From the IMG/VR virus record IMGVR_UViG_3300046804_004277, positions 1 to 63,429 of that record: 63,429 nt of DNA; one strand, 5' to 3'. Made by a program: the position numbers and the translations under genes. Positions within the stretch are counted from its first letter, which is position 1. Every line of letters begins with the position of its first letter. The DNA comes from a virus. Under the pieces are notes generated by a model. The model was not told the origin of the DNA. It did no database searches and saw only the letters and a list, made by a program, of their open reading frames with translations. This document shows, piece after piece, positions 7,149-26,034 of this stretch.

Positions 7149-8185
7149 TATTCTACTTCGCAAGCTTGTTTATAAAGGTCTTGAAATATTCCTTTGATGA
7201 TATTTTTATCAAATCCAAATTCTGCTTCATCAATATAACGATTTAAAATTGAAATAGTATTCTCTTCCTCATCAACCTGAAACTCTTCATTTTCCTGAAT
7301 TTCAAAGTTTTCAATAATTTTGAGTTCTTGAATACCTGCAGTATAAAGTTTATCAATAAACTTTTCAAAATCTTTTGGTTTGGATTTTTTACGAACAATA
7401 ATTTTTACAATTTTATTTTCATACTCAGTGGCATCAAACATTTGATGCGCTGTATCCTCATAATAAATGTTATAGAATAATTTATAAGGATTGTTAATCG
7501 GAGTATGCTCTAGGGTTTCTGTATCAAAAATATGAAATCCACGAGGGTCATTTACATCATTCCAATACATTTCATAAGGATTACCAAGATAGAAGATGCG
7601 TCCATTATCAGAACGAGTGTGGTAATGACCAGAAAATACCTTTGTGAAGTTTGAAAAAATATTCGAATCCAGTCCATGCTCCTCCATAATCAGATTTCGA
7701 TTGACACGAAACCCTTGAAGTTCCAAGTGCCCAAATGCAACCTTTGCTTTTGACTTTTTGATTACATTCATCGTTTCTTCATAGTTCTCACTACAAATCC
7801 ATGGAATGAACGTCATATCAATTCCACCGACTTTTGTATTTGTTGGAGAACTATAAGTTTTAATGTTTGAATAAGTCTTGAGAAGAAGACTTGGAGAATT
7901 CACATGATTAGTATTCTTATAATAACAATCATGATTACCAACAATCATATGAACCTGATGGTCCCGCAAAGGTTCAAATACAACACGCTTCGCCCATTCC
8001 AAACTTTGATAGTCAATTGACTTCCGACTATCAAAAGCATCGCCCATATGAATGACTGCTTCTACCCCATGCTCTTTTAAGGCAGGGAAGAATACATTCT
8101 TATAGAAGAGTTCAAAGTGGTCATGAAGATGTTTAGAACCTTTGCGGGCACCAAAATGGCTGTCGGAAATTACGCCGATTTTCAC
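7148..8185 (-). CDS. gp47: gp47 recombination nuclease subunit, Mre11-like
   Basis: 345 residues with the calcineurin-type metallophosphoesterase motifs in order: SDSHFG (8-13), GDAFDSRK (about 48-55), GNHDC, FGHLE and SGHYHTR. It is the nuclease partner of gp46. The start overlaps the stop of the HNH endonuclease gene by 4 bp (ATGA), so translation is probably coupled. Length is close to T4 gp47. Confidence 0.95.
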   Translation of the reverse strand: MKIGVISDSHFGARKGSKHLHDHFELFYKNVFFPALKEHGVEAVIHMGDAFDSRKSIDYQSLEWAKRVVFEPLRDHQVHMIVGNHDCYYKNTNHVNSPSLLLKTYSNIKTYSSPTNTKVGGIDMTFIPWICSENYEETMNVIKKSKAKVAFGHLELQGFRVNRNLIMEEHGLDSNIFSNFTKVFSGHYHTRSDNGRIFYLGNPYEMYWNDVNDPRGFHIFDTETLEHTPINNPYKLFYNIYYEDTAHQMFDATEYENKIVKIIVRKKSKPKDFEKFIDKLYTAGIQELKIIENFEIQENEEFQVDEEENTISILNRYIDEAEFGFDKNIIKGIFQDLYKQACEVE

Positions 8186-8742
8186 TTTTGTTGCCTCCTG
8201 CTATTTTCTTGGGCAGTTTTCATAAGATGCTCTTCGTGAGTAATAATTTGGAGATTATCTGGGTGGTGCAGTCCACCCTCAAATAAAGGAATCATATGGT
8301 CTACATCATACTGCACTCCAGTGGTAAAAGTCAAGTGCTGTGCCTCTTGATATATTTCTTGAATTTGCCGAAGTTGTTGTTCGGTGATTTCAATTGGAAT
8401 ACCTTGTTTCAATCTAGCATATCGTCTTCTTTGCCTCTCACAATTTACTGCCTTACCTCTTTCGGTTTTAGCATATTTTCTCTTTATTCCATTGACTCTT
8501 TCTTTATTATCTTCACAATATTTTTGTTTTTTCTCCTTTGTCCTATAAGGTTTCATCAACTCTTCATTATTCAATTTTTCCAATCCTTTCTTTTTAAGGC
8601 AAGGAGCACAACTTGAAGTAGAAACATATTTTTCATAACTACCACAATGTTTGCAGGCAGTAGAACCTTCATAAGTTTTCTTACCTTCTTCTATTGCCTG
8701 TAATCTATTCTGTCTTCCAACACCGCTATATTGATTAGGCAT
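8182..8742 (-). CDS. HNH homing-type endonuclease
   Basis: 186 residues. A four-cysteine zinc knuckle lies near the N-terminus (C30, C33, C45, C48), a lysine/arginine-rich middle follows, and a C-terminal HNH domain has YDVDHMIPL (D148, H149), HHPDN and THEEH. It is a free-standing endonuclease wedged between gp55 and gp47, where it overlaps gp47 by 4 bp. Its expression seems controlled by a hairpin that encloses a late promoter (8745-8792) and covers the GGAG ribosome-binding site. It could be a selfish homing gene or one recruited for exclusion of co-infecting phages. Confidence 0.85.
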   Translation of the reverse strand: MPNQYSGVGRQNRLQAIEEGKKTYEGSTACKHCGSYEKYVSTSSCAPCLKKKGLEKLNNEELMKPYRTKEKKQKYCEDNKERVNGIKRKYAKTERGKAVNCERQRRRYARLKQGIPIEITEQQLRQIQEIYQEAQHLTFTTGVQYDVDHMIPLFEGGLHHPDNLQIITHEEHLMKTAQENSRRQQK

Positions 8743-8744
8743 AA

Positions 8745-8792
8745 TGCTCCGTAATGCTATAACTATTTATAATTATTAAACATTACGGAGCA
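8745..8792 (-). promoter_or_regulatory. Hairpin with late promoter in its loop, covering the HNH gene's Shine-Dalgarno
   Basis: Perfect 12-bp inverted repeat (8745-8756 with 8781-8792; TGCTCCGTAATG/CATTACGGAGCA). The 24-nt loop contains a perfect late promoter TATAAATA (8764-8771). The promoter-distal arm contains GGAG, four bases from the HNH ATG at 8742. Read-through RNA from gp55 would fold and hide GGAG. Late RNA starting about 6 nt past the promoter lacks the first arm and would be translatable. T4 uses this logic for lysozyme and I-TevI. Confidence 0.75.
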
Positions 8793-19898: not shown

Positions 19899-22058
19899 TT
19901 AAAATTTTCCGATTACTTCTTCAAAGGAAACACCAGTTTTGGTGGCGACAAAAGTAAGACCAATAAAGTTAATTGATCTTGCAGGTTTAATGTAGATGTC
20001 AGCAACAAATTCATTATTATCTATAACAGTAGCAGTGTTATTTGTTTGATCACAAATAACAACATAATCATAAATCCCTCTTTTCGCTTGAACATCGCGG
20101 AGGAATGGTTCAACAGTATTTACAAAGTTTGTTCTAGTGATTTCATCATTAAATTCGAAGAGTTGATCCTTTGCAGCATTCGTGATTGCATTTTCAAGGT
20201 GAATGAACAGACGACGAACATTAATGCGATCAAATGCTGATGCCTTAGCATATCCAGTTTTATCACCAAACAGAATAATTCCTGCTCCTGGAGAGAAGAT
20301 TACTGGATTGACTCTATTTGTGTAGAGTTTATCTCTTTGAGAATTCGATGGATTGTATGCCAATTTAACGGCATTTAGAATAGCACCTCTATTTGTTCCT
20401 GCAGGTGAGTACCATGGGAAGTTATTAATATCATTACGAGCACAAAGACCAGCAATATCTCCATTTAAAGGAACATATCTAAAGGTATTTGAGAATCTAT
20501 CATACATGTACTTATAACCAGAATCAAATACTGCATAAGTTGATGAAGTGACTGGTGCAAAGAAATCAGTTACATTCGTGGTAATATCTGCAGCAGAATT
20601 GACTGTAACTGCAGTTTGTGATGAAGTATCAGTTAATGCAGCACCTCTATATGGTGAAATGAATGCTAGAGAATCTTTTCTTAGTTCTGCAACCGAAATC
20701 AGTTTATTTGCAAGTGCTTGAGCAGTTTCCTTACTGTATCCTGCAGATCCCATCAACAAGAAATCAATCTTATAATTATCGGTGTTTTCAAATAGGTCAT
20801 ATCCAGATGACAGACCTGTGAGAGATACTGTAAGTGCCCCAGATGCTGTAATATCTGCCGCGCCATCATAGTTCTTACCACCTGCTAAAGTATTGGTTGA
20901 AGATCCAGTAGCGCCAAAAATTACCCCATCAGTTCCACCATCAGCAGTTTGATCCCAACCATAATCTTCGTCTGGGGTGAATCCTGAACTAAATCCAGTT
21001 GTTACAATGCCTGCAGGTGCTCCACCAGCAAAGATATACTGAGAATTAGATGCAATATACTTTCTCCAGTAAGAAGTGCTTCCTGCAGAAAATTCAGCAT
21101 CTGTTGCTTTTGAAAGTGAAAGATGCTTTTCAAGAATTGTTCCAGCATTTCCAGTAACATTTCCAAGAGCATCAATTACTACAACATGAACTTCATCAAA
21201 TCTTGAGTTTCTAGCCGCAGCAAATGCTGAAGTTGAAGGTCTTGGTGCAATATTATTCCAATTAATGGTTGAAGTCGAAGTTAATCCGATGGTTTGCTGA
21301 TCAAACCAGTCTGTCTTAGAGAATGGAGTTGCAGTAGCAACTCCCGTATTGCTACTATTATAAACACTAATACTTGTAGAAGAATCGAATTGATAAACTC
21401 CACCTGGTTGATAATCAACTGCAGTTTCAGTTCCGTTTGTAACATAACTCAGAACTTTAACATCAAGAGTGCTTGCTCCAATTCCAGTAATAATACCCTT
21501 TAAGTATCCGTTTAAGGATGAAGTTGAACCTGCTCCAGGAAGAGTTGTAGTAATTGCTTGAGTTACTCCATATCCAATTACTGCAGAAGATGTAACAATT
21601 CCTAAAGTTTGGTCAGCTTTAGCATCGATGATTGCAACTCTAATGCCGTTTGACCATGAACCTGGATTCTTTGCCGCAACGACTACATTAGAAATAGTAT
21701 TTTCGTCGTATCCAAGTTGAGTATAGTGATCTAAACTCTTAATTTTTACACTCGAAGCAGTTCCAACAAATCCATTTTTTAAATCTGCATCATCTGCTCT
21801 TACAACTTGAAGTGCTCCGCCATATGCAAGATATGAAGAAGCAACCAACCAATGCTCATAATGCTTATCAATCGCATAGGGCTCTCCGAAAGTTTTCAGT
21901 AAATCATTCTCATTCTCTACCAAAAATGGTGAATCTACAGGTCCTTTTGCAAAAGGTGCAACAATTGCACCGATTTTGTTCGAAGGAGAAGTAGCTCTTC
22001 CAATCGTTAAATCAACTTCTTTTACTGTAATTCCAGGAGATGCTAAATTTAGTGGCAT
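19899..22058 (-). CDS. gp18: gp18 contractile tail sheath protein
   Basis: 719 residues. The N-terminal MPLNLASPGITVKEVDLTIG and the C-terminal GILFGDKTGY-like segment, FDRINVRRLFIHLENAI and VICDQTNNT, are hallmarks of T4-type sheath proteins. The T/S-rich insertion between about 200 and 420 forms the protruding surface domains, which vary among phages. A perfect TATAAATA lies 35 nt upstream. Confidence 0.97.
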   Translation of the reverse strand: MPLNLASPGITVKEVDLTIGRATSPSNKIGAIVAPFAKGPVDSPFLVENENDLLKTFGEPYAIDKHYEHWLVASSYLAYGGALQVVRADDADLKNGFVGTASSVKIKSLDHYTQLGYDENTISNVVVAAKNPGSWSNGIRVAIIDAKADQTLGIVTSSAVIGYGVTQAITTTLPGAGSTSSLNGYLKGIITGIGASTLDVKVLSYVTNGTETAVDYQPGGVYQFDSSTSISVYNSSNTGVATATPFSKTDWFDQQTIGLTSTSTINWNNIAPRPSTSAFAAARNSRFDEVHVVVIDALGNVTGNAGTILEKHLSLSKATDAEFSAGSTSYWRKYIASNSQYIFAGGAPAGIVTTGFSSGFTPDEDYGWDQTADGGTDGVIFGATGSSTNTLAGGKNYDGAADITASGALTVSLTGLSSGYDLFENTDNYKIDFLLMGSAGYSKETAQALANKLISVAELRKDSLAFISPYRGAALTDTSSQTAVTVNSAADITTNVTDFFAPVTSSTYAVFDSGYKYMYDRFSNTFRYVPLNGDIAGLCARNDINNFPWYSPAGTNRGAILNAVKLAYNPSNSQRDKLYTNRVNPVIFSPGAGIILFGDKTGYAKASAFDRINVRRLFIHLENAITNAAKDQLFEFNDEITRTNFVNTVEPFLRDVQAKRGIYDYVVICDQTNNTATVIDNNEFVADIYIKPARSINFIGLTFVATKTGVSFEEVIGKF

Positions 22059-22092
22059 CTTTATTCTCCGTCTATCCAGAATATTCTAGAAG

Positions 22093-22100
22093 TATTTATA
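22093..22100 (-). promoter_or_regulatory. Late promoter (TATAAATA) for gp18
   Basis: Perfect late octamer upstream of the gp18 ATG, just after the gp17 stop codon. Confidence 0.8.
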
Positions 22101-22120
22101 AATTCCTCCCCCTTCACCGA

Positions 22121-23335
22121 CTACCTATAATCCCACATATAAGATCGGTCTCCATATTCATCAACATTCCATATTTCTTCTGACTGAATTCTATTTTGTC
22201 TATCAGCAAATACCCATCTATCTCCAGTTTCAGAATCAACAAAAGATTCCATTTCATCTAAACCATCCACAATAAAACCAAAAGGAGACATATCTTGCTC
22301 AATTTGATTTTTTTGCTCTTCATAGATTCTTTTACGAACATCATTGTTCGTCATTTCTTTAAAATAATCTTGAGCAACTAACCAAGAAAAAATAACCAAG
22401 CACATCGCTAGGTCATCATTACATCCTTCTTCTGCCTCAAATGAATTCTTTCTTTGAATAAACGTCGTTAGTTCTGAAATAATATCATAATCTTTGACAA
22501 GTAATTTATCATCTTCAATTAAGGTTCTTAGATTAGAACATCCCAACTTTTTTACAGCAGCAGTCATGCGAACACCCAGTTGAGATTTCTTACCACTAAA
22601 TCCAGATCCCACAATCTGCCCTGCACGACCTCTCATCGCACACATCAAAACATTATCATATTCGAGATCAAAGTGAAGGATATTTGCTACTTGGTCTCCA
22701 ATATCATTAACTTCAACCAATAACCAAGAATCATTATATCCCTTTGCTACTTCATGAATGATGCTTGGGAATAACATCGGTTTGATTTCATTATTTTTAT
22801 ATTTTGCTACTACTCTATATGGAAAATTTGTAATATCAAAAACAATAAATGCAGAGTAATCATTTCCAATACCGCGAGCAACATCAACTGTGATTAGGTA
22901 ATTATTCTCTTCTTTTGGATGCTCGTAAACATCTAAACCAGCATTTCTTTTAAGTGGATCATCATAGACAAGAGTTCTTAATTTTGCTGCATTAATTAAA
23001 GTATCAACCGACCCTAAGAACTCGCAGTTATGAGATATTATATCATTTGAATAATATAAATTATCTTCTCCAACATCTAATAAATCATAAAGATATACTC
23101 CTTCTTCTACTATTTCATTGTATACAATTTTTTTTCCTTGTAGGATGTCATCCACTTTGATTGTGGATGCTTTAATTTTTTCTGACCCAAACGAATGATT
23201 TTCGGAGCACTTTATTTCTGTTCCATCCTCAAAAATTATCCAGTGATAAAATGGTTTATAAACTTTCTGAATACCTGAGAAAGATTTAAACCCAGTGGGG
23301 GTTTTTACTAATAAATCTTTATTAAGTTTAAACAT
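22121..23335 (-). CDS. gp17: gp17 large terminase, C-terminal half fused to a C-intein
   Basis: 404 residues. Residues 1-103 are a C-terminal split-intein fragment and 104-404 are the terminase nuclease half (C-extein), starting CEFLGSVDTLI. The nuclease domain has YLITVDVARGIGND, LLVEVNDIGDQ and EGCNDDLAM, acidic residues of the RNase H-like fold that cuts packaged DNA. The first codon overlaps the endonuclease gene by 8 bp. An AAAGGAG Shine-Dalgarno lies about 10 nt upstream, inside that gene. Joined to residues 1-264 of the gene at 23926-24807 it gives a normal-length gp17 of 565 residues. Confidence 0.93.
   Translation of the reverse strand: MFKLNKDLLVKTPTGFKSFSGIQKVYKPFYHWIIFEDGTEIKCSENHSFGSEKIKASTIKVDDILQGKKIVYNEIVEEGVYLYDLLDVGEDNLYYSNDIISHNCEFLGSVDTLINAAKLRTLVYDDPLKRNAGLDVYEHPKEENNYLITVDVARGIGNDYSAFIVFDITNFPYRVVAKYKNNEIKPMLFPSIIHEVAKGYNDSWLLVEVNDIGDQVANILHFDLEYDNVLMCAMRGRAGQIVGSGFSGKKSQLGVRMTAAVKKLGCSNLRTLIEDDKLLVKDYDIISELTTFIQRKNSFEAEEGCNDDLAMCLVIFSWLVAQDYFKEMTNNDVRKRIYEEQKNQIEQDMSPFGFIVDGLDEMESFVDSETGDRWVFADRQNRIQSEEIWNVDEYGDRSYMWDYR
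23027..23335 (-). other. C-terminal split intein (103 residues)
   Basis: It begins MFKLNKDLLVKTPTGFKSF and contains a block B-like CSENHSF with its histidine, a block F-like YDLLDVGEDNLYYSND, and block G IISHN followed by Cys+1 of the extein. This is most of an intein, with only block A missing. The sizes (29 + 103) match the atypically split AceL-TerL type (25 + 104) described from a terminase gene. Confidence 0.92.
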
Positions 23336-23897
23336 TTTTCCAACACTCCTTTAAAACTATTCTTTTAAGTCCTTGTGATGTTAAATTATACTTATCAGCA
23401 TATTCTTTACAAAATGCTTGGATGTATGACATTTTTTTTCCATTTTTCATAATCAATCCTACCGATGGTAAATCTGGTTTTGTATCAAATAAAATGCGTA
23501 TTTCCTTTACTTGGTCATCGGTAAGTTTTCTACTAAAAACTCTACCTTTCCTAACTTGCTTCATTTTTGAGATTGTTTCTTCCGAGAAGCAATTTTTCAC
23601 ACCTTTATTCCAAGGGATGTTCCCTTTATCTACACCACCTATTCCAGTTCTATCGTAATTATCAAAACCTTCTCCTCCTGTGGATTTATTCCATCCATTT
23701 TTATAGGTATCAAATTGTTTTATATAATTAATTTCCAAATTTTTTGCATCTTCAGCAATATTGGTTTCTTCTACAATCTCAAAAATATGTTGAGGTTTGC
23801 TATTTTTATGGTCCCTTTTTCTGGTGTTAGGGTCCTGAGTCTGACCAATATATTTAATATTATCGTTCAAATCTTTAAGTAAGTAGATATAATACAT
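23328..23897 (-). CDS. GIY-YIG homing endonuclease between the two terminase halves
   Basis: 189 residues. The N-terminal nuclease domain has YIYLLKD...KYIGQT, an arginine in NTRKRDHK, and the conserved glutamate in NLEINYIKQF. A NUMOD3-like DNA-binding motif (GNIPWNKGVKN and FSEETISKMKQVRKGR) starts near 92, and a helix-turn-helix-like tail (QAFCKEYADKYNLTSQGLKRI) ends the protein. Free-standing endonuclease genes between split-intein halves are the hallmark of fractured genes. A late promoter TATAAATA lies 10 nt upstream of its ATG, giving a nearly leaderless RNA. Confidence 0.9.
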   Translation of the reverse strand: MYYIYLLKDLNDNIKYIGQTQDPNTRKRDHKNSKPQHIFEIVEETNIAEDAKNLEINYIKQFDTYKNGWNKSTGGEGFDNYDRTGIGGVDKGNIPWNKGVKNCFSEETISKMKQVRKGRVFSRKLTDDQVKEIRILFDTKPDLPSVGLIMKNGKKMSYIQAFCKEYADKYNLTSQGLKRIVLKECWKNV

Positions 23898-23906
23898 TTT
23901 TATTAT

Positions 23907-23914
23907 TATTTATA
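23907..23914 (-). promoter_or_regulatory. Late promoter (TATAAATA) for the endonuclease and terminase C-half
   Basis: Perfect late octamer in the short gap between the stop of the N-half and the endonuclease ATG. It could feed both the endonuclease and the downstream C-half. Confidence 0.75.
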
Positions 23915-23925
23915 ATCCAAAAAAC

Positions 23926-24807
23926 TCACATTCGTTGATAGAGTTCTTCCATAGTAACATTATGGGTGTTACCTTCATCATCAATTATTTCTATTTTAGT
24001 TTCTCCACTTAAACATTCAAACTCAACCTTAAACTGTTGTTCACTAGTATTAGCAATCGTCTGTGCCTTCCATGCATCGTCTCTACCAGGGACTTCAGAC
24101 CAATGCACATCCGTTGGCACATATTCGTTCTTGCCCCTCTCAGCGTCATGCCACATGCGGTAGAAGTGATTCATACCGCGTGGTGTAGAAACAATAATTA
24201 CCTTTGTGCTTTGACCAGAAGAAATAGTAGGATAAACAGAGGCAAAGAAGTCATCAGCAATATGATTCGGGATGAACGCGAATTCGTCAAGAAAGATGAC
24301 ATTATAGGATCCGCCTCGAACAGCAGATGAAGAAGTAGAGTTTGATGAAATTTTTGATCCATTTTCTAACTCTAGAGAGCCCTTATTCCAAGATATAATA
24401 CCCTGTTGCATCCACTTGGGTAAATTCTCATAAGCAAGTTGCAATCTTCCGAGAAGGTCTCTGGCAGTGGATGCTTTGTTCGCTAGAATAGCTATATTGA
24501 CATTATCGTTGAATACTGCATAATGTAATAGATATGAAACACAAGTCGTAGATTTACCCGTCTGACGAGGCATCTTACAAATATTAAATCTATTCTTATG
24601 GAAATTTGTTACAAGTTTCTCTTGAAATGGATACATCTCAAAAGGAACAAGACCGTGGTCCAGAGAAACAATTTTAATATAATTCTTTGCGAAATATACG
24701 GGGTCTTCCTTACACTTTAAGAACTCGATAATTTGTTCTTCAGTAAATTCAATCGGCGTATTCGCTTTTTTGAGCAGAGGATTGCCCAAATAGACATCAT
24801 TAGACAT
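23926..24807 (-). CDS. gp17: gp17 large terminase, N-terminal ATPase half fused to an N-intein
   Basis: 293 residues. Residues 1-264 are the packaging ATPase: Walker A RQTGKST (81-87), Walker B IFLDE (171-175) and the coupling motif STP (207-209). At residue 265 the sequence leaves terminase and reads CLSGETK...EELYQRM and stop, a 29-residue N-intein. The preceding QFKVEFE is normally followed by CEFLGS in cyanophage gp17, and that is exactly where the downstream gene resumes. gp17 powers DNA translocation into the prohead, so splicing is required for viability. Confidence 0.95.
   Translation of the reverse strand: MSNDVYLGNPLLKKANTPIEFTEEQIIEFLKCKEDPVYFAKNYIKIVSLDHGLVPFEMYPFQEKLVTNFHKNRFNICKMPRQTGKSTTCVSYLLHYAVFNDNVNIAILANKASTARDLLGRLQLAYENLPKWMQQGIISWNKGSLELENGSKISSNSTSSSAVRGGSYNVIFLDEFAFIPNHIADDFFASVYPTISSGQSTKVIIVSTPRGMNHFYRMWHDAERGKNEYVPTDVHWSEVPGRDDAWKAQTIANTSEQQFKVEFECLSGETKIEIIDDEGNTHNVTMEELYQRM
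23929..24015 (-). other. N-terminal split intein (29 residues)
   Basis: Cys1 is encoded at 24015-24013. Block A CLSGETKIEI is followed by an acidic turn and MEELYQRM. It is unusually short for an N-intein: in most split inteins the break lies after about 100 residues. Confidence 0.9.
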
Positions 24808-24813
24808 AATAAA

Positions 24814-26034
24814 TTACCTACTAATTTCTTCCCAGTCCATAGATGCATGAATATCAGCATTTAAACTTGCAGAAGCGACCAATGTGAGTTCATAAGGAGT
24901 TCCAGTTAATCCATCTCTTTCTAATTGGAATTTAAAAAGTGCTTCTTTGAGAATATCTACAGGAACAGAACTTTGTTGAGTTGAGGTGAAATATCCACTT
25001 GCCAAAACTCTTCCACCAGTAACTGTTCCACCATCAATTTTATATTCAACAGCACTATCAGAACCAGCACTTGTCCAAGTTCCTCCAGATGTGGTAGCAC
25101 TTGCTCTCACTTGCCAACTATAGTTTGCATTGTTTGTAATACCAAGCATTGAAATTGCCGTTAAGATTACAATACCATCTAAACGATTTGGAGATGCTTT
25201 AAGACGAAGAGAAATGACTGGATAAAAAGTTCCAGTAGGTAGTGGTAAATTTACTGGAGATGTGATTGTGGTTCCAACTGCTTGTTGCAATCCACGAAGT
25301 TCATAACCACCTTCTGAAATCACAGTAGAACAAACTTGTTTAAGTGTGCTTGAACTTGTTGTTACTCCAGTATTTGTAATCTCATATCTTATTGGTAATG
25401 ATGCTGTTGTGATATAAGTTGATTGGACTAGATTTGCGTGATGAAATGAATGACAGTGAATAAATTTACCATCAATCACAAAACCAACTCTAACTGTTCC
25501 CAGTCCCAACCATTCAATATCAGTCCACATAATTTGACCTTTGGATGGGTCAAGTGTATATCCAGAAGGTCCAGTTCCATCTAACTTATCATATAACCAA
25601 GATGATTGTGGTACATGAGTTTCTGATAAGATTCCACTTACAATACTTCTTTCTACAAAATTTAAAGTAGTTCCATCTGCCTCAAAATAAATTCCATTAT
25701 CAGCACCAAAGTATCCTACTCTCTGACGAAGATTGTTTTTAGGTGTATTCATTACAAATGTATTCATTATTTGTAATGATTTTCCTGGTTGATAAGGGAA
25801 TACTTTTGTCGTTTCTCTGATGACTGATTCACCACTTGTGGTTCCAATACCAATATTAACCAATCCTTGAGTTGTTACAAATCCAACAGTTGCACCAGTC
25901 CCAACAATCAAACTAGTAAAAAGATTATTATCTCTATATCTGTGAGAAGAATCAAAAAGTGTTAATGGACTTGAAGTTCTTAAACGACCAAATGCATCGT
26001 GTTGGTCTAAACTTGGTTGATATAAATGAGACAT
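24814..26034 (-). CDS. Virion structural / fibre-like protein
   Basis: 406 residues from the ATG at 26034. A GGAGG lies just upstream, inside the end of the preceding gene, and decides this start over an upstream TTG. The N-terminal AFGRLRTSSPLTLFDSSHRY is a motif I know from phage structural and fibre-associated proteins. The rest is strand-rich with many G, T and S. It lies between gp16-related genes and gp17. A capsid- or tail-surface role is inferred. Confidence 0.75.
   Translation of the reverse strand: MSHLYQPSLDQHDAFGRLRTSSPLTLFDSSHRYRDNNLFTSLIVGTGATVGFVTTQGLVNIGIGTTSGESVIRETTKVFPYQPGKSLQIMNTFVMNTPKNNLRQRVGYFGADNGIYFEADGTTLNFVERSIVSGILSETHVPQSSWLYDKLDGTGPSGYTLDPSKGQIMWTDIEWLGLGTVRVGFVIDGKFIHCHSFHHANLVQSTYITTASLPIRYEITNTGVTTSSSTLKQVCSTVISEGGYELRGLQQAVGTTITSPVNLPLPTGTFYPVISLRLKASPNRLDGIVILTAISMLGITNNANYSWQVRASATTSGGTWTSAGSDSAVEYKIDGGTVTGGRVLASGYFTSTQQSSVPVDILKEALFKFQLERDGLTGTPYELTLVASASLNADIHASMDWEEISR

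What the first reader, a model, noticed from the sequence alone, without database searches (positions are those of the whole stretch)
22121..24807. Large terminase (gp17) split by an atypical trans-splicing intein
Seen in sequence: the first gene stops being terminase at residue 264 (QFKVEFE) and continues with a 29-residue N-intein starting CLSGETK. The second begins with a 103-residue C-intein ending IISHN and resumes terminase at CEFLGSV with Cys+1. The two exteins give a continuous 565-residue gp17. Known: the AceL-TerL split intein has the same unusual early split (about 25 + 104 residues) and also sits in a terminase. Inference: a functional fractured gene in which an essential packaging motor depends on protein trans-splicing. 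The very short N-part and the Cys1/Cys+1 pair make it an interesting new family member.
Basis: partly seen in the sequence, partly recalled or inferred. Interest (0 to 1): 0.93.

Follow-up and report, generated by a model that had tools for sequence, protein, structure and literature searches.

The report
Fractured phage terminase with split intein
A cyanophage encodes its DNA-packaging motor as two separate proteins that should be stitched together by a known kind of self-splicing split intein; a mobile DNA-cutting gene sits in the break, and just upstream of that gene is a short copy of the motor gene's own insertion site placed against its promoter, which may be the gene's off-switch.

Summary
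TerL (gp17) is encoded as ExtN(264)-IntN(29) and IntC(103)-ExtC(301). The exteins join without a gap into a 565-aa terminase 89% identical to the unbroken one of Synechococcus phage S-SRM01. IntC matches the solved consensus atypical TerL intein Cat (6DSL) at E 7.5e-52 and IntN at 5e-5, so this is an AceL/Cat-TerL-type split intein, a known kind, with at least 289 IMG/VR stretches encoding relatives. Fractured genes with GIY-YIG HENs are published (AceL NrdHF) and annotated in Aeromonas phage PX29 gp17. New evidence here: (1) IntN-HEN-IntC moves as one cassette (synonymous divergence from a relative: about 1.2 in both exteins, 0.01 in the HEN). (2) HEN-deleted and HEN-nonsense relatives stay split, so splitting does not require the HEN. 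(3) A 19-bp near-copy of the intein-less insertion site sits between IntN and HEN, abutting a TATAAATA late promoter, in 60 of 60 loci. It parallels the I-TevI autorepressor operator; I found no report of it for inteins in the papers held. Splicing and autorepression are inferred, not shown.

The parts
24016..24807 (-). ExtN: N-terminal 264 residues of the terminase large subunit (ATPase domain)
   Evidence: PF03237 E 1.4e-19; aligns to S-SRM01 TerL without gaps
23929..24015 (-). IntN, 29 residues (CLSGETKIEIIDDEGNTHNVTMEELYQRM), Cys1
   Evidence: match to CatN of 6DSL E 4.9e-5; Cys1 in 63/63 relatives
23914..23933 (-). homing-site copy / putative operator GAATGTGAGTTTTTTGGATT; overlaps the last IntN codon and stop
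   Evidence: 18/20 to intein-less S-SRM01 junction, best hit in the whole window; 22.1 bits on a PWM of 80 intein-less alleles versus 16.0 at the IntC|ExtC border and 4.2 at the best unrelated site
23907..23914 (-). T4-type late promoter box TATAAATA upstream of the HEN
   Evidence: present in 58/60 loci; 7 such boxes on the coding strand of the window, 0 on the other
23328..23897 (-). GIY-YIG homing endonuclease gene, 189 aa, free-standing ORF inside the fracture
   Evidence: PF01541 E 9.3e-7; phrog_314 homing endonuclease E 7e-18; Y16, G18, R26, H30, E55 and N70 invariant in 22 sequences
23027..23335 (-). IntC, 103 residues; ORF start overlaps the HEN stop by 8 nt; block-B S44/H47, terminal His102-Asn103
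   Evidence: match to CatC of 6DSL E 7.5e-52; dN/dS 0.09
22121..23026 (-). ExtC: C-terminal 301 residues of terminase (nuclease domain), Cys+1 first; includes stop codon
   Evidence: PF17289 E 8.6e-11; aligns to S-SRM01 TerL

Best explanation
This is a fractured terL of a T4-like cyanophage (Kyanoviridae-like). TerLN-IntN and IntC-TerLC are translated separately. The 29-residue IntN docks into the 103-residue IntC, the HINT fold forms, and class 1 splicing (Cys1 thioester, transfer to Cys+1, Asn103 cyclisation) should yield a scarless 565-aa packaging motor. The GIY-YIG ORF in the break is a homing endonuclease that cuts the intein-less terL junction, so repair copies the IntN-HEN-IntC cassette into the recipient. 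The 19-bp copy of that junction abutting the HEN's late promoter most likely lets the HEN bind and repress its own transcription, as I-TevI does. Shown here: anatomy, homology, conserved catalytic residues, purifying selection, cassette mobility, and the conserved site copy. Inferred: splicing in vivo, cleavage of the junction, repression.
For: 6DSL matches. Gapless extein join to S-SRM01. Catalytic residues invariant across 63-77 loci. dN/dS: IntC 0.09, HEN 0.17, IntN 0.38. Mobility: synonymous divergence between window and L003 is 1.17 ExtN, 0.21 IntN, 0.01 HEN, 0.13 IntC, 1.20 ExtC, with sharp steps at the intein borders. The 11 loci that form one clade by HEN+IntC (support 100) need 6 changes on the extein tree, where that clade is rejected (p-AU 0.011). 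Relatives lacking the HEN (L011, L058, L059) remain split in different frames, and L050 has a nonsense HEN. Site copy: top site in the cassette in 60/60 loci; similarity confined to -3..+16 (0.81, against 0.24 and 0.29 outside), and 0.92 conserved among pairs whose HEN four-fold sites are only 0.52 identical; 0 of 20,000 random sequences reach it; its exact motif recurs in 86 IMG/VR stretches, and all readable flanks checked lie at this cassette. I-TevI precedent: 15/20 identity, late promoter (PMC2988022).
Against: No splicing, cleavage or binding was measured. The Pfam and NCBIfam intein models match only weakly (E 0.039; E 0.14, below cut-offs). IntN is relaxed (dN/dS 0.38). The 11-locus clade tested was chosen from the intein similarity, so the p-value is approximate. 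The site copy could serve some other purpose than repression.
Confidence: 0.9

Rival explanations
1. HEN insertion made a two-subunit terminase that works by assembly of the halves without splicing, as nrdA split by mobE in phage Aeh1 does; the intein pieces are passive tails.
For: A two-piece ribonucleotide reductase interrupted by a HEN without splicing is cited in PMC10448857. IntN evolves fast (dN/dS 0.38).
Against: IntC dN/dS is 0.09 and all splicing residues are invariant in 63-77 loci; tails without a function would decay. Two different intein pairs are kept in one gene in L080 and L076.
Confidence: 0.05
2. The site copy is not an operator but a leftover of how the fracture formed, or a short homology arm used in recombination.
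For: It duplicates the exact insertion junction, and parts of it vary at what would be wobble positions of C-E-F-L-G.
Against: It is 0.92 identical between pairs whose HEN four-fold sites are 0.52 identical, so it is selected. It abuts the promoter in nearly all loci and is absent from the cultured-phage cassettes examined (VP-1, K452, PX29, EniLVp02). It vanishes when the HEN is deleted.
Confidence: 0.3
3. Assembly error or pseudogene: a broken terL with an intact copy elsewhere in the phage.
For: The window is a partial record, so a second copy outside it cannot be excluded. Only one terminase N-domain match is found in the record.
Against: The same break recurs in dozens of contigs from separate samples, with strong purifying selection on both exteins.
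Confidence: 0.01
4. The interruption is removed as RNA (group I or II intron with a GIY-YIG HEN).
For: GIY-YIG HENs are common in phage introns, and ICP1 terL is spliced at RNA level (PMC10448857).
Against: No Rfam match at E up to 1 in 21900-25000. The flanking segments are coding, under selection and match an intein structure. Close relatives keep the split with a gap of only 11-47 nt.
Confidence: 0.01

Closest known systems
AceL-TerL / Cat-TerL atypically split inteins (PDB 6DSL)
   Same: Same host gene, same early split after the first helix (25-30 + 104 residues; here 29 + 103), Cys1/Cys+1, block-B Ser/His, close IntC sequence
   Different: A new natural sequence in a cyanophage; IntN matches CatN only weakly (E 4.9e-5). 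The genomic context of AceL-TerL could not be checked here (no copy of that paper or contig held)
GOS-TerL split intein
   Same: Atypical split in TerL with Cys+1 (PMC11766414); relatives with the same Ser1/Cys+1 layout (L161, L166) sit at the same insertion site
   Different: GOS has Ser1 and 37+115 residues; L166 carries a different type of endonuclease
Fractured genes with an intervening HEN, e.g. AceL NrdHF with GIY-YIG (PMC7891396) and Aeromonas phage PX29 gp17A/gp17B
   Same: Split intein halves either side of a GIY-YIG ORF; the PX29 record notes 'N-intein' and 'GIY-YIG endonuclease and C-intein' at the same terL site
   Different: In PX29 the HEN is fused to IntC, in Vibrio VP-1 and K452 to IntN; here it is free-standing with its own late promoter and site copy
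I-TevI autorepressor operator of phage T4
   Same: GIY-YIG HEN with a near-copy of its homing site lying against its late promoter (PMC2988022: 15/20 identity; here 18/20)
   Different: I-TevI sits in a group I intron and repression is proven; here it is a split-intein fracture and repression is inferred

Membership tests
AceL/Cat-type atypically split TerL intein | Inserted in TerL and split early, giving an IntN of about 25-37 residues and an IntC above 100 | tested here: met
   29 + 103 residues in gp17
AceL/Cat-type atypically split TerL intein | Sequence homology of both fragments to the solved family structure | tested here: met
   6DSL CatC E 7.5e-52, CatN E 4.9e-5
AceL/Cat-type atypically split TerL intein | Class 1 residues: Cys1, block-B SxxH, terminal His-Asn, Cys+1 | tested here: met
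   63/63, 76/77, 77/77 and 77/77 loci
AceL/Cat-type atypically split TerL intein | Trans-splicing activity | not testable with these tools
   needs co-expression
Fractured gene with homing endonuclease | Split intein halves flank a HEN ORF inside the host gene | tested here: met
   GIY-YIG ORF between halves in nearly all relatives
Active GIY-YIG homing endonuclease | Conserved catalytic Tyr, Arg, Glu and Asn | tested here: met
   Y16, R26, E55, N70 invariant; model of the domain matches I-TevI and UvrC domains only weakly (E 0.04)
Active GIY-YIG homing endonuclease | Horizontal spread of the cassette relative to its host gene | tested here: met
   dS steps and tree conflict
Active GIY-YIG homing endonuclease | Cleavage of the empty site | not testable with these tools
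   needs a cleavage assay
I-TevI-like autorepressor | Homing-site-like sequence overlapping or abutting the HEN's late promoter | tested here: met
I-TevI-like autorepressor | HEN binds the site and represses transcription | not testable with these tools
   needs gel-shift and reporter tests

The most novel reading that the evidence does not exclude
The free-standing GIY-YIG endonuclease in the fracture is also a repressor of its own late promoter, binding a 19-bp copy of its homing site. That would be an I-TevI-type autorepressor in a split-intein system, where it would also tune expression of the downstream IntC-TerLC half of an essential motor.
Probability: 0.55. Interest if true: 0.62.

Novelty: new member of a known kind. 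Interest (0 to 1): 0.5.

Why it matters
It shows that atypically split TerL inteins are widespread in cyanophage-like viruses, that they spread as IntN-HEN-IntC cassettes, and that the split persists after the endonuclease is lost. The conserved site copy points directly to the homing site of the endonuclease and makes its regulation testable. The close relatives also supply many natural IntN/IntC pairs, and pairs of different split inteins in one protein, useful for protein ligation.

Tried and rejected
AlphaFold of the IntC-TerLC protein (mean pLDDT 49) was not used. The HEN model matches I-TevI and UvrC GIY-YIG domains only weakly (E 0.04). Charge complementarity between IntN and IntC: both negative, so not the docking force. 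A promoter-wide motif as the source of the site copy: the other TATAAATA boxes in the window lack it. An RNA intron: no Rfam match. No match to the site copy in the cassettes of VP-1, K452, PX29 or EniLVp02 (best 10-11 of 20). Search of bacterial genomes for the HEN gave one weak hit. The Dassa 2009 fractured-genes paper and the Sekar 2022 Cat paper are not held.

Full report
Observation. On the minus strand the window encodes TerLN-IntN (23926-24807, 293 aa) and IntC-TerLC (22121-23335, 404 aa). Residues 1-264 and 104-404 are terminase (PF03237 and PF17289). Joined, they give 565 residues that align to the single-ORF terminase of Synechococcus phage S-SRM01 over 562 residues, 89% identical, with no gap at the junction. 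In S-SRM01 the junction reads EFE-CEFLG, so Cys+1 is native to the terminase.

The intein. The joined 29+103 residues match chains CatC (E 7.5e-52) and CatN (E 4.9e-5) of 6DSL, the consensus atypically split TerL intein, and more weakly gp41-1. The published description of Cat gives 30+104 residues, Cys1/Cys+1, and a role for Ser75 and His78 of IntC (PMC11766414); these are the S and H of the conserved block-B SxxH, present here as S44 and H47 of IntC. In 63 distinct loci with an IntN, Cys1 is invariant; in 77 with an IntC, His-Asn|Cys-Glu-Phe-Leu-Gly is invariant. Pairwise dN/dS is 0.09 for IntC, 0.17 for the HEN and 0.38 for IntN. The intein is therefore kept functional. Splicing itself was not tested.

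The gap holds a 189-aa GIY-YIG ORF (PF01541 E 9.3e-7; phrog_314 E 7e-18) with invariant Y16, G18, R26, H30, E55 and N70. Its stop overlaps the IntC start by 8 nt. Of 63 loci with IntN, 60 have a gap near 593 nt with this HEN. Three lack it, with gaps of 11, 19 and 47 nt, and yet the halves stay in different frames with a separate start for IntC. L059 keeps the last 14 HEN residues, so at least that one is a deletion. L050 has a nonsense codon in the HEN. The split thus persists without a working HEN.

Mobility. Synonymous divergence between the window and L003 is 1.17 (ExtN), 0.21 (IntN), 0.01 (HEN), 0.13 (IntC) and 1.20 (ExtC); L006 shows the same pattern, while L043 and L056 show lower divergence in ExtN than in HEN and IntC. 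Identity steps up at the intein borders. In a HEN+IntC tree 11 loci including the window form one clade (support 100); the extein tree scatters them (6 changes) and rejects the clade, p-AU 0.011, with the caveat that the group was named from intein similarity. HEN and IntC identities correlate at 0.90, IntN with them at about 0.7, exteins at about 0.4. In L016 the HEN and IntC DNA are 93-94% identical to the window while IntN is 68%, suggesting that a breakpoint can fall between IntN and HEN.

The homing-site copy. Between the IntN stop and the HEN start lies GAATGTGAGTTTTTTGGATT (23914-23933), followed at once by TATAAATA. The intein-less junction of S-SRM01 is GAATGTGAGTTTTTAGGATC: 18 of 20 bases agree, the best match in the window. 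A weight matrix from 80 intein-less alleles scores the copy 22.1 bits, the IntC|ExtC border 16.0 and the best unrelated site 4.2; the copy is the top site in the cassette in 60 of 60 loci. Similarity is confined to positions -3..+16. Among 1450 diverged pairs the copy is 0.92 identical while HEN four-fold sites are 0.52. No random sequence of 20,000 reached it. The exact motif with the promoter was found in 86 IMG/VR stretches; 80 occurrences were read, and all with enough flank (78 downstream, 79 upstream) have the HEN after and ExtN-IntN before. The TATAAATA box is in 58 of 60 loci; the window has 7 such boxes on the coding strand and none on the other. For I-TevI the review PMC2988022 describes a sequence 15/20 identical to the homing site overlapping the late promoter, and proven autorepression. 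By analogy, the HEN here probably represses itself. This is inference.

Context and novelty. At the same terL site, Vibrio VP-1 and K452 carry the GIY-YIG fused to IntN, Aeromonas PX29 fused to IntC (annotated as such in GenBank), and EniLVp02 has overlapping halves with no HEN. The window HEN is homologous to that of VP-1 (E 1e-8). GOS-TerL-like Ser1 relatives use the same site. A fractured gene with an intervening GIY-YIG is published for AceL NrdHF (PMC7891396). The intein is therefore a new member of a known kind. The site copy at the HEN promoter is, to the extent of the literature held here, not described for inteins.

Noticed in passing
L080 3761-7215; L076 985-5070; L066: Terminase encoded in three pieces: a second, different split intein at Walker A plus the one studied here, each with its own endonuclease (five ORFs); the middle piece carries an IntC in front and an IntN behind.
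   Followed up: partly
L007, L033, L034, L050, L064, L071, L079, L119: Relatives that also carry a contiguous intein of about 340 residues at Walker A (GK|..LDTPIPTP..THN|STT), with class 3-like features.
   Followed up: partly
L016 5315-6309: IntN 52% but HEN and IntC 93-95% identical in protein to the window: IntN and HEN-IntC can have different histories, so IntN/IntC pairs may be reassorted.
   Followed up: partly
L166 2826-3959: GOS-TerL-like relative at the same site with a different, Vsr/EDxHD-looking endonuclease ORF between the halves; type judged by eye.
   Followed up: no
window 8182-8742: HNH/endonuclease VII-like ORF (phrog_1035) between recombination genes, with its own TATAAATA box at 8771 flanked by an inverted repeat; a possible further mobile endonuclease.
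   Followed up: no
L149, L150, L154, L157, L158, L160: Cultured T4-like phages of Campylobacter, Shigella/E. coli, Vibrio, Yersinia and Pseudomonas have inteins at two other terL sites (Walker A and after Walker B), several split with Vsr-like or other endonuclease-like ORFs.
   Followed up: partly
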